A stretch of DNA of 64,000 bases from Acidobacteriaceae bacterium (GTDB taxonomy: Bacteria; Acidobacteriota; Terriglobia; Terriglobales; Acidobacteriaceae), in NCBI GenBank assembly GCA_035944135.1, contig DASZBM010000001.1, positions 434,001-498,000 on the forward strand. Direction: 5' to 3'. The notes below the pieces were generated by a model. The model saw only the letters and a list, made by a program, of their open reading frames with translations. It was not told the DNA's origin and made no database searches. Position numbers and translations under genes: made by a program. Positions 41,212 through 51,325 of this stretch are shown here, one piece after another (within the stretch, counting starts at the first letter, position 1; the number at the start of each line of letters is the position of its first letter).

Positions 41212-43035
<1,824 letters not shown>

Positions 43036-43868: not shown

Positions 43869-43949
43869 CGCGCGGGCATCAGCGAGGGCCGGAGCGGCAG
43901 ATTGCGCTCCGGCCAATGTGTTTTTGTGCCCTATACTGACGGCGAGATC

Positions 43950-45428
43950 ATGGAAAACTTCGCGACGGATGGCCCGATCAGCACAGTGGAGCGGATGGCG
44001 CTCGCGAAGTACTCGCTCGACGGCGCGTACGACGAGATGTTTGCGGCGGCGGACGAACTGCACGACCACTACGAGCCGCTGCTGAAGCTGTTGAAGAGCA
44101 TGCCGCAAGCGGAGATTCAGCGGCGGAAGCAAGAGGCGGACCTGAGCTTCCTGAACCAAGGCATCACGTTTACGGTGTACGGACAGGAAGAGGGCACGGA
44201 GCGAATCTTTCCGTATGATCTGCTGCCGCGGATCATCACGGCAGCCGAGTGGGAGCGCGTGGAGCGTGGACTGACGCAGCGAATTACGGCGCTGAACCTT
44301 TTTCTGAAGGACATCTATAACGAGGGGCGGATTCTTAAGGACGGCGTCGTGCCGCGGGAGCTGGTGTACTCGTGCCCGCAGTTCAGAAGGCAGATGAGCG
44401 GACTGCAGGTGCCACGCAATGTGTATGTGGCGATCTGCGGGACGGATCTGATCAGGCTGCAGAACGGCGACTTTGTGGTGCTGGAGGACAACCTGCGCGT
44501 GCCCAGCGGTGTCAGCTATATGCTGACCAATCGGCGCGTAATGAGGCGGATCTTTCCGCGGCTGTTCCGGCAGTACAACGTGCGGCCGATTGAGAACTAC
44601 ACACAGGTGCTGCTGGGGACGCTGCGGTCGCTGGCGCCGGAGGGACGGGCGGAGCCGAACATCGTGCTGCTGAGTCCGGGTGTGTTCAACTCGGCGTACT
44701 TCGAGCATGCGTACCTGGCGAGGCAAATGGGCATTGAGCTCGTGGAAGGGCGCGACCTGGTGGTGCACGATAACGTGTGCTACATGCGGACGACGAGCGG
44801 GCTGCGGCGCGTGGATGTGATCTACAGGCGCGTGGACGATGACTTCATCGATCCGCTGGCGTTGCGCGCGGACTCGATATTGGGCGTGGCGGGGCTGTTC
44901 AATGCGTATCGCGCGGGGAACGTGACGCTGGCGAATGCGTTCGGCACGGGAGTGGCCGATGACAAGGCTATCTATGCGTTCGTGCCTGACATCATTCGCT
45001 ACTACCTGCAGGAGGATGAGATTCTCCCGAATGTGAAGACGTTTCTTTGTTATATCGATAAGGAGCGCGATCATGTGCTGGCGAACCTCGACAAGCTGGT
45101 GGTGAAGGCTGTGGGCGAGTCGGGCGGGTATGGGATGCTGATCGGGCCGCACGCGTCGCAGAAGGAGCGCGAAACGTTTGCGGAGAAGATCAGGGCGAAT
45201 CCGCGGAACTATATTGCGCAACCGACGATCAGCTTCTCGCGCGCGCCGTGCTTGATTGGAGATGAGTTGCAGCCGAGGCATGTGGACCTGCGGCCTTATG
45301 TGCTGTACGGCGATAAGGTGACGATTGTGCCGGGTGGCTTGACACGGGTGGCACTGCGGCAGGGCTCGCTGGTGGTGAACAGCTCGCAGGGTGGGGGGTC
45401 GAAGGATACGTGGGTGCTGAGCGAGTGA
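43950..45428 (+). CDS. circularly permuted ATP-grasp protein (DUF404/DUF407, COG2308)
   Basis: From the Met at 43950 the 492-aa product opens [16 protein letters not shown] and carries the circularly permuted ATP-grasp core: [54 protein letters not shown] and ISFSRAPCL. Members are predicted amidoligases that make short peptides and typically sit with alpha-E and transglutaminase proteins, as here. An earlier start at 43902 is disfavoured. Its stop overlaps the next gene's GTG start. The peptide product is not known. Confidence 0.92.
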
Positions 45429-46519
45429 GGCGATGGATTGCGGCAGCTGTGATGCTCATGGGCGCGGGCGCGATGTGGGCCCAGGCGCCGGCGGGCTCGC
45501 CGCGGATGGTGATCATCGACCAGGATGGGAGCGGGCCGGGCGGGTCGAACCAGATGTCCATGATGGTGCTGCTGCAGTCGCCGCAGTGCAGAGTGCTGGG
45601 CATCACGATGGTGAGCGGCAACGCGTGGGAGCCCGAGGAGGTTGCGCATACGCTGCGCATGCTGGAGCTGATTCATCGCACGGATGTTCCGGTGGTGCCG
45701 GGCGCGGTGTTCCCGCTGGTGCGCACGCAGAGTGAGTCGATGAGTGAGCGGGGGCTGACAGGAAGCTTTTACTGGTATGGCGCGTGGGGTGATGTCTCGG
45801 ACAAGACCAACAACCGGCCGTATCACGGGCCGTTCGTTGTGCCGCCGCTGACTGAGGGCGAACCCCACGCGAAGCCGCTGGATGAGGATGCGGCGCACTT
45901 TTTAATTCGGCAGGTGCACGCGCATCCGCATGAGGTGACGATCTATGCCGCGGGACCGCTGACGAATGTTGCGCTGGCGATATCGATCGACCCGGAGTTC
46001 GCGGAGATGACAAAGGGGATTGTGATTATGGGCGGAAGCCTGGCACCGCAAGGAGATGATCCGGAGTACGCGACGCATCCGCGACACGAGTTCAACTTCT
46101 GGTTCGATCCCGAGGCGGCGCACATCGTTTTGCGCGCGCCGTGGCCGCGCATCGATCTGACAACGGTGGACATCTCGGTGAAGACGCAGTTTACGAAGGA
46201 GATGTTGAAGCAGATTGCGCAGTCAAACACGCCGGCCGCGCAATACATCGCGAGATATACGGACGAGTTTTATTACATGTGGGACGAGCTGGCGGCGGCA
46301 GCGTGGCTGGACCCGGCGATCATCACGAAGGACAAGACGTTCTACCTGGATGTTGACGTGACGCACGGACCGAACTATGGCGATACGCTGACGTGGACCG
46401 CGGAAAACCGGCCGAAGGACAGGCCGCTTCAACTGGTGCACGTGCACGAGGACCTGGACACGGCGCGGTTCTACAAGATGTTTGTGGAGCTGATGAAGGC
46501 TCCACCGCGCGAGCCGTAG
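45425..46519 (+). CDS. exported nucleoside-hydrolase-like protein
   Basis: The GTG at 45425 overlaps the preceding TGA (GTGA), and the resulting 364-aa product has a signal peptide ([14 protein letters not shown]). It has the inosine-uridine nucleoside hydrolase fold: [51 protein letters not shown] and [12 protein letters not shown]. The N-terminal calcium motif DxDPGxDD reads [12 protein letters not shown] instead, losing the second Asp pair, so classic hydrolysis is uncertain. Its place between ATP-grasp and alpha-E genes is unusual. Confidence 0.85.
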
Positions 46520-46633
46520 TTCAGAAATTTCTGGGGCACGAATCGGGTGGAGTGTAGAGTAGACGAAATATTTCAGCGCGACCGGAGTTCTGGCTGGACT
46601 CCGGTCGTAAGGAACTTGTTGCACAAGGGGCCT

Positions 46634-47626
46634 ATGCTCTCCCGTGTTGCGGATTCGCTGTACTGGATGGCGCGGTACCTGGAGCGCGCCGAGCATACGA
46701 CGCGGCTCGTCGATGTGAACCTGAACCTGATGCTGGATGAGAGCTCGACGAGCTCGGACCACAGGTGGATACGCGTGCTGCAGGCACTGGGAAGGCCCAA
46801 GCGCGTTAAGTGGGATGGGAATCCGTATGAGCTGGCACGCACGCTGACGTTCGATACCGGGTACAAGTCATCGGTGCTGTCGTGCATCCTTTCTGCGCGG
46901 GAGAATGCGCGGCATGTGCGCGAGCAGATTTCGACGGAGCAGTGGCACCGGCTGAACTCGTTGTATCTGGATGCGACGCGGCCTGAGGTTAAGGCCATGG
47001 TGCAGCAACCCAAGGAGGCTGCGAGCGAGGCGCCCTCGGGGTTTCTACAGCAGGTGCTGGAAGCGGTTCATCAGTTCCAGGGCGTGACGGATTCGACGAT
47101 GACGCATGGTGAGGGATGGTATTTCATCCAGGTGGGGCGATACCTGGAACGTGCGACTGCGACGGCGCTGCTGCTGAATGCGTATCACGAAGATTTATGG
47201 ACGAAGCGCGAGCGCGCGATGGTGGGCAACGAGTACCTGGAGTGGATGGGGCTGCTGCGGAGTGCCACAGCGTTCGAGGCGTACTGCAAGGCGTACACGG
47301 CGGACCTGACGCCGGAGAGGATTCTAGAGTTCCTTCTGCTGAATGCGGAGTTTCCGCATTCGCTGCGGTTTTCTGTCGAGGCGATGCAGGAAGCGCTGCG
47401 CAGCATCCAGTCGCGCAGTGGAGGGGCGCGCGCGGAGCCGCTGACACGGCTTGCAGGGCGGATGCAGGCGACGCTCGCGTATGTTTCGGTGGACGAGATT
47501 CTGGATCGCGGTGTGATACCTTACCTGCAAAGTGTCCAGGGCGAGTGCAGTCAGCTCCACCGCATGCTGTACAGCATCTATGTGGACTATTCAGTGCAAA
47601 CCGCCCTCGCCGACTCGAGGCGATGA
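46634..47626 (+). CDS. alpha-E domain protein (DUF403, COG2307)
   Basis: From the Met at 46634 the 330-aa all-helical product reads MLSRVADSLYWMARYLERAE and TTRLVDVNLNLMLDESS, with TMTHGEGWYFIQVGRYLERA in the middle. Alpha-E proteins accompany the permuted ATP-grasp amidoligase and are thought to act with it; the reaction is unproven. It follows the hydrolase gene after about 115 bp. The frame is open to 46547 but the usual start is MLSR. Confidence 0.92.
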   Translation: MLSRVADSLYWMARYLERAEHTTRLVDVNLNLMLDESSTSSDHRWIRVLQALGRPKRVKWDGNPYELARTLTFDTGYKSSVLSCILSARENARHVREQISTEQWHRLNSLYLDATRPEVKAMVQQPKEAASEAPSGFLQQVLEAVHQFQGVTDSTMTHGEGWYFIQVGRYLERATATALLLNAYHEDLWTKRERAMVGNEYLEWMGLLRSATAFEAYCKAYTADLTPERILEFLLLNAEFPHSLRFSVEAMQEALRSIQSRSGGARAEPLTRLAGRMQATLAYVSVDEILDRGVIPYLQSVQGECSQLHRMLYSIYVDYSVQTALADSRR

Positions 47627-47789
47627 GGCGCGAAGCACGCTGCAAGAACGGGCTGGAGTATCTGCCGCTTTGGCGAAGATTGAAACAAGAGAAAACACAG
47701 ACGCGTCGCACGCGGGCAGCGGCGCGGCAGCGGATCTAAGTCATTCAGATCAGGTTTATTCAGAGAAGAGGAAGCCGGCAGCGCGGTCG

Positions 47790-48779
47790 ATGCTGATTGA
47801 CGCTGTGCGCGGGATGGCGATCTCGCTGGTAGCGCTGGGACATACGAACCAGGGCATGACACATCGCGGGTGGTGGGGCGCGTCGAATGTAGGGACGCGG
47901 CTGGATATCACGATCTATGCGTTTCATATGCCTGCGTTCTTCTTTGTATCGGGGATCTTCATCTTCGCGAGCGTGCAGAAGCGAGGACCGGGACGGTTCA
48001 CGATGGAACGTGTGCGGACGTTGATCTATCCGTACGTGCTGTGGTCGGCGATCGGCGTAGCCGCGGTAAACCAACTATCACATTTCACTGCGCAACCCGT
48101 GATTGCATGGAAGGACTTCCTGCCGGGCTTGGTGAGGGGCATCGGCATCTGGTTTCTGCCGACGTTGTTCGCGTGCCAGATGTTTGGCATGGCGCTGCGC
48201 AAGCTGCCGGGGCCGGCGATTCTGGCTGTTGCGCTCGTTGCGTACTACTTTATGCCGCGCACGGGCGTGAACTGGTTCGACCTGGCGGTCCAGTTCTTTC
48301 CGTTTGTCGCAGCCGGTATGTGGATGGGCCGTGGGTATGAGCGGCTGGAGGGGATTCCGAGGTGGGTTGGGCTTTTGGCCGCGGTTGGATTGCTCGCTGC
48401 GCTGCTGGCCGCAACCTACCGGCCGTGGACGACGTATCAAAATTACGTGCTGATCGGCGGTGCGATTGGGATCCTGATGCTGATGATGCTGGCGCGAAGC
48501 TTCGGACAATCAAAGGTTGCGCGAGTGTTTGCTTGGATCGGTGAGGCGTCGCTGGCGATTTACATGGCGGGAGAGTACGCGCAGGGGCTGGTGCGGCAGT
48601 TGATGGTGTGGGCGCATGTGATCACGCCGTATCCGCAACTCATTCTGCCCACGGTTGCCGCGATTCTGATTCCGACATGGATGTATCAATATCGCGTGCG
48701 GCTGCATCTTGGATGGTTATTTGTGGCTCCGTTCTGGAAACCGCGGCCGCGTGCGCCGCAGACTGCGAGCGCAGCATGA
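47790..48779 (+). CDS. acyltransferase-3 family membrane protein
   Basis: From the Met at 47790 the 329-aa product starts MLIDAVRGMAISLVALGHTN, carrying the family's His near the N-terminus, and has about ten hydrophobic segments (FHMPAFFFVSGIF, IGIWFLPTLFACQMF, and so on). These integral enzymes O-acylate sugars or lipids. The N-terminus may lie further upstream (an in-frame ATG at 47580 would overlap the alpha-E gene), as the family usually has a few residues before the LDAxRG-type motif. Its stop overlaps the transglutaminase start (ATGA). Confidence 0.86.
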   Translation: MLIDAVRGMAISLVALGHTNQGMTHRGWWGASNVGTRLDITIYAFHMPAFFFVSGIFIFASVQKRGPGRFTMERVRTLIYPYVLWSAIGVAAVNQLSHFTAQPVIAWKDFLPGLVRGIGIWFLPTLFACQMFGMALRKLPGPAILAVALVAYYFMPRTGVNWFDLAVQFFPFVAAGMWMGRGYERLEGIPRWVGLLAAVGLLAALLAATYRPWTTYQNYVLIGGAIGILMLMMLARSFGQSKVARVFAWIGEASLAIYMAGEYAQGLVRQLMVWAHVITPYPQLILPTVAAILIPTWMYQYRVRLHLGWLFVAPFWKPRPRAPQTASAA

Positions 48780-49753
48780 ACTACTTTGTGCGACACCTGA
48801 CGAAGTTCACCTATAAGAGCGAGGTGAGCGAGAGCATCATGGAGACGCGGATGCATCCGCGATCGGACCAGAGCCAGCGCTGCCTGATGTTTCAGCTCTC
48901 GGTGACGCCGCGATGCAGGGTGTTCAGCTATCGCGATCATCATGCGAATCATGTGCATCACTTCGATATTCCGGGGCAGCATGCGCAGCTGGTGATTGTG
49001 GCGGAGTCGGTGGTGGAGACGCAGGCGCAGGTGGAGCTGCCACAATCGCTAGGCGCGGGCGCATGGGAAGAGATGGACCGGCTGGTCGCGGAGGGTGACT
49101 TCTGGGAGATGCTGCTGCCGAGCACGTTTGCGACGCCGACGGCTGCGCTGAAGGAACTCGCGGCGGAGCTGGACGTTCGGCGAAAGGACGATCCGCTGAG
49201 CGTGTTGCATACGCTGAACAAGCAGTTGTATGAGCATTTCAGTTACAAGCCGAATACGACGCGCGCGGATTCGCCGATTGATCATGCACTTCGCAGCAAG
49301 GCGGGGGTGTGTCAGGATTTTGCGCACATCATGACGACGCTGCTGCGGACGGAATTGCGGATTCCGTGCCGGTATGTGAGCGGATATCTGTTTCATGGCG
49401 GAGGAGCGCATGACCGCTCGGAGGCGTCGGCGACGCATGCGTGGGTGGAAGCGTTTCTGCCGGAGCTGGGATGGGTAGGGTTCGATCCGACGAACGATCT
49501 GGTTGCGGGTGACCGCCATATTCGCACGGCGATTGGGCGCGACTATGCGGATGTTCCGCCGACACACGGGATCTTTCGCGGCAAAACGAAGAGCGAGCTG
49601 ACGGTGGCCGTGCGCGTGACGCAGAGCGAAGGCCGGCCAGAGCTGGATCGCGAGTTGCCGGTGCCCGAGGAGTGGTCGATCCTGGTGGAGAAGGCGCAGG
49701 CCATGCCGGACCAGCACGTGGCCAAAAGGCAGCATCAGCAGGCGCAACAGTAG
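48776..49753 (+). CDS. transglutaminase-like cysteine protease-fold protein
   Basis: The 325-aa product has the N-terminal beta domain (MNYFVRHLTKFTYKSEVSES) and a transglutaminase-like core with the Cys in KAGVCQDFAHIMTTLLR, His in SATHAWVEAFLP and Asp in GWVGFDPTNDLV. All three catalytic residues are kept. In the conserved peptide cluster these enzymes are predicted to process the amidoligase product. The ATG overlaps the preceding stop, and the window frame starting at 48608 is the wrong start. Confidence 0.93.
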   Translation: MNYFVRHLTKFTYKSEVSESIMETRMHPRSDQSQRCLMFQLSVTPRCRVFSYRDHHANHVHHFDIPGQHAQLVIVAESVVETQAQVELPQSLGAGAWEEMDRLVAEGDFWEMLLPSTFATPTAALKELAAELDVRRKDDPLSVLHTLNKQLYEHFSYKPNTTRADSPIDHALRSKAGVCQDFAHIMTTLLRTELRIPCRYVSGYLFHGGGAHDRSEASATHAWVEAFLPELGWVGFDPTNDLVAGDRHIRTAIGRDYADVPPTHGIFRGKTKSELTVAVRVTQSEGRPELDRELPVPEEWSILVEKAQAMPDQHVAKRQHQQAQQ

Positions 49754-49804
49754 ATGGTTTGATGTGCGGCGGATGACAAGGTCGCGCGACTAGAATCCGT
49801 GAGA

Positions 49805-51325
49805 ATGGGTGTGGGCTTTGAGTTCGAGCGGCGCGTAGAGTTTGCGCCCGAGCGTGCGACGGAGATTCTGCGGGAGATTCCTGCAGCTCCGGGAGTTGTT
49901 TGTCTGCGCGGGCATGATGAAGCGGCGCAGCCGTATCTAACGCGCGCGGCGGACGTACGGCGAAGGCTGCGACGATTGCTGGATTCACCGGATGCCGTGG
50001 ACGAGGCGGGAAGACCGGTGTTGTCGAAGCGGCTGAACCTGCGCGAGCGCGTGCGCTGGATCGAGTGGACGCGGACGGGGTCGGAGTTTGAGTCGACGGT
50101 GGTGTTGTACTGCGCGGCGCGGGCGAGCTTTGGGCCAGCGGAGGCGCGCCGAAGGCTGAGGCTGCATGCGCCGTTTGTGCTGCGGATGGCGATGTCGAAC
50201 GAACATCCGCGGGTATATGTGACAAATAAGTTGAACAAGAGATCCTTGGCGGAGGCGTATGGGCCGTTTGCATCGCGGGCGGCAGCGGAGCGGTACTGCG
50301 AGGCGGTGCTGGACCTGTTCAAGCTGCGGCGGTGCTGGGAGGACCTGGAGGTTTCGCCTGAGCATCCGGGGTGCGCGTACGGCGAGATGAAGATGTGCAT
50401 GGAGCCGTGCAAGGGAGCGTGCACGCGCGAAGAGTATGCGGCGGAGGCAGAGCGGGTTCGCAGCTTTTTAGAAACGAATGGAGAGTCGATGCTGGCGGAG
50501 TTGGCGGCGAAGCGTGAGGCTGCCAGCGAGGCGATGGACTTCGAGGGCGCGGCAGCCGCGCACAAGCAGTGGGAGAAGGTGAAGGCCGCGACGGCGCTTG
50601 CGGATGAAATTGTGCAGCCGCTGATGAAGCTGCGGGCGTTGATTGTGCAGGCGGCGGCGCCGACGGATGAAGAGAGTGCGCGCGAAGCGGCGAGTGTGTT
50701 TGCGTTTGAGCAGGGGCGGATTGTGGGGCCGGAGCGGTTGTCCACGCTGGGTGTTCGCGCCGTAAAAGAGCAGACGGCTGTGGGGAGTTCGCTGTTTGCG
50801 CAGCCGCTGATGATTGCGGCGGTGCCGCTGGATCAGCCCAGCGAGCAAGCTCGCCGGGGACCGCGGGACGAAGCGAGTCAGCAGGTTAGCGAATCAGCGA
50901 GTCAGGGAGCGGGGGAGGCGATGGTCTCGCACGCAGCGTTGAATCCGGAGGAGCGGGCGCGCGGTGTGATTGCGCGGCTCGAGGAGCGGGTGCGCGAGGC
51001 GGGTGAGCCGCAGGTCGAGGAGCGCTGCGATTACCTCTCGCTGCTGCGGCGGTGGTACTACCGGCCGGAGAAGCAGCGGGCAGGGGCGATTCTCTTCCCT
51101 AACCCGGATGGGGCTTGGCCGGTGCGGCGGCTGCTGAATGCGGCAGCAAGAGAGGCGCTTGGGCCGCCGCGGGAGGCTGCAGCGGTGGATCGCGAGGCGG
51201 CGAAGGAGATGAAGACACGTGTGCTGCATCCGGGGCGCGAGGGTGTGGAGCGAGTTGTGCCGCTATTGCCGAAACGTGCGAGGCGAAAGAAGGGTGTCCT
51301 GCCTGAGAATGTCCCCGAAGAGTGA
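49805..51325 (+). CDS. UvrC homologue lacking the C-terminal nuclease half
   Basis: The 506-aa product has a UvrC-like N-terminal GIY-YIG-type region (EILREIPAAPGVVCLRGHDE, then PYLTRAADVRRRLRRLLD), a Cys-rich stretch (YGEMKMCMEPCKGACT) and a UVR-like helix pair (KREAASEAMDFEGAAAAHKQ). The RNase-H-like nuclease and HhH region of full UvrC are absent; the C-terminus ends in a Lys/Arg-rich tail. The canonical Gly-Tyr motifs of the GIY-YIG centre are altered, so nuclease activity is doubtful. A GCGAGTCA repeat tract lies in frame at 50872. The ATG at 49805 is chosen over the GTG at 49799. Confidence 0.82.
   Translation: MGVGFEFERRVEFAPERATEILREIPAAPGVVCLRGHDEAAQPYLTRAADVRRRLRRLLDSPDAVDEAGRPVLSKRLNLRERVRWIEWTRTGSEFESTVVLYCAARASFGPAEARRRLRLHAPFVLRMAMSNEHPRVYVTNKLNKRSLAEAYGPFASRAAAERYCEAVLDLFKLRRCWEDLEVSPEHPGCAYGEMKMCMEPCKGACTREEYAAEAERVRSFLETNGESMLAELAAKREAASEAMDFEGAAAAHKQWEKVKAATALADEIVQPLMKLRALIVQAAAPTDEESAREAASVFAFEQGRIVGPERLSTLGVRAVKEQTAVGSSLFAQPLMIAAVPLDQPSEQARRGPRDEASQQVSESASQGAGEAMVSHAALNPEERARGVIARLEERVREAGEPQVEERCDYLSLLRRWYYRPEKQRAGAILFPNPDGAWPVRRLLNAAAREALGPPREAAAVDREAAKEMKTRVLHPGREGVERVVPLLPKRARRKKGVLPENVPEE
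50872..50905 (+). repeat. GCGAGTCA repeat tract inside the UvrC-like CDS
   Basis: 34 bp AGCGAGTCAGCAGGTTAGCG and AATCAGCGAGTCAG, in frame, encoding the low-complexity EASQQVSESASQ. Matches the intergenic tract at 15565 at 29 of 34 bases. Confidence 0.8.

What the first reader, a model, noticed from the sequence alone, without database searches (positions are those of the whole stretch)
43950..49753. ATP-grasp/alpha-E/transglutaminase cluster expanded with a nucleoside-hydrolase-like and an acyltransferase gene
Known knowledge: permuted ATP-grasp (COG2308), alpha-E (COG2307) and transglutaminase proteins form a widespread cluster predicted to make and process peptides. Here two further enzymes are built in. 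The nucleoside-hydrolase-like gene starts inside the ATP-grasp stop (GTGA) and the transglutaminase starts inside the acyltransferase stop (ATGA), so the extra genes are coupled into the unit. The combination hints at a peptide that is acylated or linked to a nucleoside/ribose-like group. This is the strongest candidate for an undescribed system here.
Basis: partly seen in the sequence, partly recalled or inferred. Interest (0 to 1): 0.7.

Follow-up and report, generated by a model that had tools for sequence, protein, structure and literature searches.

The report
Known gene trio with two add-ons
A soil bacterium carries a widespread but poorly understood three-gene cluster, thought to make peptides, into which two further genes have settled; relatives share the add-ons separately, so it looks like a lineage-specific elaboration of a known cluster rather than a new five-enzyme pathway.

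Summary
Confirmed: five same-strand genes encode a permuted ATP-grasp, a nucleoside-hydrolase-like protein (NH), alpha-E, an acyltransferase-3 (AT3) and a transglutaminase-like protein, with 4-nt overlaps at ATP-grasp/NH and AT3/transglutaminase. The add-ons are not private to this strain: among 24 alpha-E-bearing genomes of the genus, NH lies directly upstream of alpha-E in 16, AT3 between alpha-E and transglutaminase in 7, both in 6. But the overlaps were found only here, and NH and AT3 do not track each other. NH has a signal-peptide-like N-terminus and lacks the Asp-Asp of the DxDxxxDD fingerprint in 35 of 35 copies. AT3, a predicted membrane protein, holds the same slot in a second genus and mostly abuts alpha-E. 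Best reading: the known trio (Anbu-operon trio without Anbu), plus an AT3 that probably serves it, plus an exported NH-like enzyme that is probably a neighbour rather than a pathway step. The 'nucleoside-linked peptide' is not supported. Against me: NH and AT3 co-occur with the trio more than expected.

The parts
43950..45428 (+). Circularly permuted ATP-grasp protein (492 aa)
   Evidence: Pfam PF14403 575.7 bits, PF04174 515.8 bits; closest solved structure by sequence 3n6x, E 9.4e-176
45425..46519 (+). Nucleoside-hydrolase-like protein with signal-peptide-like N-terminus (364 aa, GTG start inside the ATP-grasp stop; alternative GTG at 45410)
   Evidence: Pfam PF01156 208.4 bits; residue counts; N-terminal hydropathy
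45518..45553 (+). Altered fingerprint in [14 protein letters not shown] (residues 32-43) where nucleoside hydrolases have DxDxxxDD
   Evidence: Alignments to solved enzymes and to orthologues
46634..47626 (+). Alpha-E protein (330 aa)
   Evidence: Pfam PF04168 297.6 bits; residues LSR after the first Met invariant in 37 aligned sequences, Met itself in 90% or more; model pLDDT 90.3
47670..48779 (+). Acyltransferase-3 family predicted membrane protein; start TTG 47670 or ATG 47790
   Evidence: Pfam PF01757 107.3 bits; start candidates; an Arg ahead of the ATG is conserved in 23 of 23 copies, favouring an upstream start
48776..49753 (+). Transglutaminase-like protein (325 aa)
   Evidence: Pfam PF08379 and PF01841; motifs around Cys, His and Asp present, starting at residues 177, 220 and 236 (catalytic roles recalled)
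43887..43914 (+). Terminator-like hairpin between the upstream gene and the ATP-grasp gene
   Evidence: 10-pair stem, 9 G-C (9 terminator-like sites in the stretch against 3.3 expected); consensus match only

Best explanation
The core is the known trio: an ATP-grasp enzyme, taken to be cytosolic, that activates a carboxylate with ATP and joins it to an amine, its helical partner alpha-E, and a transglutaminase/protease-like enzyme; in some other bacteria related genes respond to nitrogen supply. Two genes have settled into this operon in the genus of this strain (g1, which holds Granulicella and Bryocella species). AT3, a predicted membrane acyltransferase, sits between alpha-E and transglutaminase in at least two genera and mostly can start right after the alpha-E stop; it most likely acylates a membrane- or envelope-side acceptor connected with the trio's product. 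NH is an exported enzyme with an altered active site, probably acting on an N-riboside or other glycoside outside the cytoplasm; its gene most likely took an insertion-tolerant junction and shares transcription, not a pathway, with the trio. Shown: gene identities, order, recurrence, altered motif, hydrophobic N-termini. Inferred: export, locations, substrates, co-transcription, functions.
For: Trio: 79 of 150 genomes drawn from the order have alpha-E; in the neighbourhoods of these 79, a transglutaminase gene is found in 79 and the ATP-grasp gene in 76. AT3: in the alpha-E/transglutaminase slot in 7 of 24 alpha-E genomes of the own genus and 9 of 24 of genus g4; first possible AT3 start 0 nt after the alpha-E stop in 12 of 16 other loci, some of them near-identical genomes. 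NH: directly upstream of alpha-E in 16 of 24 own-genus genomes and in the cluster in 0 of 68 alpha-E genomes of other genera. NH N-terminus hydrophobic in 30 of 31 rows, two rows being the same own gene and the exception a row without a start codon; the trio proteins score far lower (hydropathy only, no signal-peptide predictor). NH residues: D14 equivalent Ser in 31 of 31, D15 equivalent Asn in 28 and Asp in 3; in a wider set of 35, D14 is Ser in 34 and Thr in 1, D15 is Asn in 31, Asp in 3, Gly in 1, so DD in none. Of 19 NH copies outside the cluster that I fetched, I scanned the neighbours of three: one beside an alpha-L-rhamnosidase, one beside a GH35 beta-galactosidase, one beside NIPSNAP and aldose-epimerase genes. 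The ATP-grasp/alpha-E junction of relatives also holds DUF676 hydrolases (L066, L068, L230), BrnT genes (L070, L071, L229) or a TetR gene (L067). NH tree: most in-cluster copies in an own-genus clade with two relocated own-genus copies nested in it. Nitrogen: PP_2685 (proteasome beta-like) and PP_2688 (ATP-grasp) higher on nitrate than ammonium (PMC8050072, passage); DUF403 and DUF404/407 genes listed at -9.4 and -8.2 in an NtrC-regulon table (PMC5491218, passage); trio domains associated with urea-metabolism domains in marine metagenomes (PMC3597751, passages).
Against: NH and AT3 co-occur with alpha-E even when not adjacent. In g4, NH (E 1e-129 or better) in 16 of 24 genomes with alpha-E and 0 of 11 without; AT3 (E 1e-50 or better) in 11 of 24 and 0 of 11 (Fisher p 0.0002 and 0.007); over 80 genomes of five genera NH 37 of 62 against 3 of 18, AT3 15 of 62 against 0 of 18 (p 0.0025 and 0.018). 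Pagel-type tests p=0.0105 and 0.014, on a TypA tree that does not recover the genera and so is a weak control. This speaks against NH as a mere neighbour; but in g2, 3 of 6 genomes without alpha-E keep NH. Against a tie of AT3: it lies outside the cluster in five genomes, the AT3 tree mixes in-cluster and outside copies with modest support, and most trio genomes lack it. [quoted passage not shown] putida. No expression data for this organism.
Confidence: 0.55

Rival explanations
1. Integrated five-enzyme pathway: the peptide is built by ATP-grasp/alpha-E, acylated by AT3, trimmed or linked by transglutaminase, and NH removes or handles a ribosyl group.
For: Both add-ons in the cluster in 6 of 24 own-genus genomes; co-occurrence and Pagel-type tests; overlaps in this genome.
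Against: NH looks exported, the trio proteins do not; NH and AT3 do not co-vary (p=0.35); overlaps found only in this genome; of the 79 trio genomes of the order draw, only the own one has both genes in the cluster.
Confidence: 0.15
2. Nitrogen-scavenging regulon: the trio answers nitrogen limitation and NH, exported, releases nitrogen-rich bases from outside ribosides under the same control; the link is regulatory, not biochemical.
For: Nitrogen-dependent expression of trio relatives in Pseudomonas putida and Burkholderia (PMC8050072, PMC5491218, passages); NH co-occurs with the trio even at a distance in g4.
Against: No sigma-54-like site within one mismatch at the cluster (consensus recalled, and control in this phylum may differ); NH motif altered; two of the three outside NH copies scanned point to sugar degradation.
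Confidence: 0.2
3. Pure passengers: both genes are unrelated to the trio, in an operon tolerant of insertions.
For: Variable cargo at the ATP-grasp/alpha-E junction; 11 Acyl_transf_3 genes in the own genome; AT3 copies outside the cluster.
Against: AT3 is found in one exact slot in two genera, with a possible 0-nt gap to alpha-E in 12 of 16 loci; co-occurrence tests.
Confidence: 0.1

Closest known systems
ATP-grasp / alpha-E / transglutaminase trio (COG2308/COG2307; peptide-synthesis prediction of Iyer et al. 2009, not held, known through citing papers and recall)
   Same: Same three families; alpha-E present in 79 of 150 genomes of the order draw, with transglutaminase in the neighbourhood in 79 and ATP-grasp in 76.
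   Different: Two additional genes inside; no Anbu here.
Anbu operon (PMC5666114, PMC6376114; passages seen)
   Same: ATP-grasp, alpha-E and transglutaminase families; the Yersinia bercovieri ATP-grasp releases phosphate from ATP (PMC6376114).
   Different: The only proteasome-family match in this genome is HslV beside HslU, so no Anbu was found.
IU nucleoside hydrolases (RihA/B/C and plant and protozoan enzymes)
   Same: Family by Pfam (208.4 bits); equivalents of D10, T126, E166, N168 and D242 kept in 31 of 31 rows (residue roles recalled). The Trp before the last Asp resembles Trp260-Asp261 of IAG nucleoside hydrolase (PMC4660014, passage).
   Different: Three-residue insertion and loss of Asp-Asp in DxDxxxDD; signal-peptide-like N-terminus; far below the NCBIfam cut-offs for named enzymes (best 110.2 of 433 bits).
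HopQ1, a nucleoside-hydrolase-like protein with an altered aspartate motif (PMC3608555, passages only)
   Same: NH-like domain with a non-canonical aspartate motif; no activity was found on standard nucleosides.
   Different: Different motif change and biology; used only as a precedent, no sequence fetched.
Acyltransferase-3 family (NolL- and MdoC-like by NCBIfam, far below cut-off)
   Same: Family match; His21 and other residues conserved in 23 of 23 aligned copies.
   Different: Does not reach any named subfamily (35.7 of 425 and 31.7 of 338 bits).

Membership tests
ATP-grasp/alpha-E/transglutaminase trio | Permuted ATP-grasp gene | tested here: met
   575.7 bits against cut-off 32
ATP-grasp/alpha-E/transglutaminase trio | Alpha-E gene | tested here: met
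   297.6 bits against cut-off 20.8
ATP-grasp/alpha-E/transglutaminase trio | Transglutaminase-like gene with Cys-His-Asp | tested here: met
   roles of residues recalled
Anbu operon | Anbu gene present | tested here: not met
   Single PF00227 match in the genome; it is HslV (273.5 bits, cut-off 137) beside HslU (593.7 bits, cut-off 362.45)
Nucleoside hydrolase | IU_nuc_hydro domain | tested here: met
   208.4 bits against cut-off 34.2
Nucleoside hydrolase | DxDxxxDD fingerprint (PMC8910321, PMC3608555) | tested here: not met
   [14 protein letters not shown] in 0 of 35;
Nucleoside hydrolase | Third Asp about 230 residues downstream (PMC8910321) | tested here: met
   D287 in 31 of 31 rows
Nucleoside hydrolase | Hydrolysis of an N-riboside | not testable with these tools
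   Needs purified protein
Acyltransferase-3 | Acyl_transf_3 domain | tested here: met
   107.3 bits against cut-off 31
Acyltransferase-3 | About ten membrane segments (number recalled) | tested here: inconclusive
   Crude hydropathy gives 5 segments over its threshold
Single five-enzyme pathway | NH and AT3 inherited together in the cluster | tested here: not met
   AT3 in 6 of 16 with NH and 1 of 8 without, p=0.35, 24 genomes
Single five-enzyme pathway | Co-transcription of all five genes | not testable with these tools
   No expression data

The most novel reading that the evidence does not exclude
The trio makes an amide-linked nitrogen-storage or tag compound under nitrogen limitation; AT3 anchors or caps it at the membrane, and the exported NH-like protein, with its rebuilt metal site, cleaves a non-standard riboside or glycoside outside the cytoplasm as the recycling step. 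The co-occurrence of NH and AT3 with the trio even when unlinked would then reflect one dispersed pathway, giving the first substrate handle on the alpha-E system.
Probability: 0.1. Interest if true: 0.65.

Novelty: new variant of a known kind. Interest (0 to 1): 0.3.

Why it matters
The product of the ATP-grasp/alpha-E/transglutaminase trio is unknown although the trio is widespread. A predicted membrane acyltransferase that keeps the same place inside the trio in two genera is a concrete, testable clue that the product reaches the membrane or envelope. The NH-like family with a rebuilt fingerprint is a separate small open question about substrate.
Full report
WHAT IS THERE. The two overlaps are literal: GTGA 45425-45428 and ATGA 48776-48779. 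The rest of the unit is looser: 114 nt between NH and alpha-E, 43 or 163 nt between alpha-E and AT3. The window lies in a 4.43-Mb, 10-contig genome. By matching contig lengths, members of its genus g1 include Granulicella mallensis, G. paludicola and Bryocella elongata, while Granulicella rosea falls in genus g4.

THE TRIO. Alpha-E occurs in 79 of 150 genomes drawn from the order. I read the neighbourhoods of all 79 (up to 7 kb each side): transglutaminase is found in 79 and ATP-grasp in 76, three g8 genomes lacking it in the stretch. The own genome has one proteasome-family gene, HslV next to HslU, so no Anbu was found. Published hints: Pseudomonas relatives are higher on nitrate than on ammonium (PMC8050072, passage) and Burkholderia ones are listed in an NtrC-regulon table (PMC5491218, passage); the Yersinia ATP-grasp releases phosphate from ATP, and no specific binding of Anbu to the other operon proteins was detected (PMC6376114, passages).

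THE ADD-ONS RECUR, SEPARATELY. In the genus, 24 of 28 genomes have alpha-E. NH lies directly upstream of alpha-E in 16 of 24; AT3 lies between alpha-E and transglutaminase in 7 of 24; both in 6 of 24. One AT3 carrier (L232) is on a short contig on which ATP-grasp was not found and is counted as lacking NH. In genus g4 AT3 holds the same slot in 9 of 24 alpha-E genomes, with NH in the cluster in none. Among 80 named alpha-E loci, a capped list of the best matches, NH is in the cluster in 6, AT3 in 3, both in 2; these overlap with the genomes above. NH and AT3 insertions are not associated (p=0.35).

HOW TIGHT. Among 15 other loci with NH in the cluster, no start codon gives a 4-nt overlap with ATP-grasp; two (L065, L229) have no usual start near the expected place and stay unresolved. 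First possible starts run from 12 nt to about 2 kb after the ATP-grasp stop, with other genes in between in some: DUF676-type hydrolases (L066, L068, L230) and BrnT genes (L070, L071, L229). AT3 differs: in 12 of 16 other loci its first possible start follows the alpha-E stop at 0 nt.

WHAT NH IS. It matches IU_nuc_hydro well, but the alignment to solved enzymes puts PGGSN against PGIDD after a three-residue insertion. Across 31 rows (own gene twice) the D14 equivalent is Ser in all, D15 is Asn in 28 and Asp in 3, His241 is Trp in all, and D10 and D242 are kept in all (numbering of the Crithidia enzyme recalled). A Trp before that Asp is also found in IAG nucleoside hydrolase (PMC4660014, passage), so that change alone is not odd. 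A wider set of 35 has no DD. A hydrophobic N-terminus is seen in 30 of 31 rows. It is the only match of its Pfam family in the genome. It should be called nucleoside-hydrolase-like. Of 19 copies fetched away from the cluster, the neighbours of three were scanned: an alpha-L-rhamnosidase, a GH35 galactosidase, and NIPSNAP plus aldose epimerase. In the NH tree most in-cluster copies form an own-genus clade with two relocated own-genus copies inside it; two g4 copies also fall there (L243, nearby support 0.906; L250, support 0.290).

WHAT AT3 IS. A PF01757 protein, one of 11 in the genome, with several Arg, His and Gly residues conserved in all 23 copies aligned. The tree, rooted on a distant copy and with modest support, has two deep branches, each with in-cluster and outside copies, so either repeated entry into the slot or ancient residence with departures.

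THE EVIDENCE AGAINST ME. In g4, NH is in 16 of 24 genomes with alpha-E and 0 of 11 without; AT3 in 11 of 24 and 0 of 11. Dependent-evolution models fit better (p=0.0105 and 0.014). The tree used is of one gene, does not recover g1 and g4, and so controls poorly for descent; in g2, 3 of 6 genomes without alpha-E have NH. I read this as a real but weak link, stronger for AT3 because of its fixed place.

VERDICT. Known trio, lineage-specific elaboration; AT3 probably works with the trio, NH probably only beside it. The nucleoside- or ribose-linked peptide idea found no support here.

Noticed in passing
window 41212-43035: The own TypA/BipA gene is closest (91%) to a genus-g4 genome that lacks alpha-E, unlike the genus assignment; possible gene exchange next to the cluster.
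   Followed up: partly
19 of 150 order genomes, e.g. G089:C189:9656-10621: A second alpha-E type lies in open frames of about 830-920 aa, with a transglutaminase-like match close by in those compared: perhaps a fused second version of the system.
   Followed up: no
L093 (G119): Alpha-E is separated from ATP-grasp by 5.2 kb and from transglutaminase by 3.1 kb.
   Followed up: no
L070, L071, L229: BrnT-type toxin genes sit between ATP-grasp and NH in relatives.
   Followed up: partly
L242 (G090): NH and a GH35 beta-galactosidase ORF overlap by 4 nt outside the cluster, the same kind of overlap as here.
   Followed up: partly
window 49799-51325: A 508-aa ORF right after the cluster has no Pfam match at E<=0.001 but resembles the UvrC-like part of DEDD-exonuclease and UvrC models, far below their cut-offs (best 101.4 of 495 bits).
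   Followed up: partly
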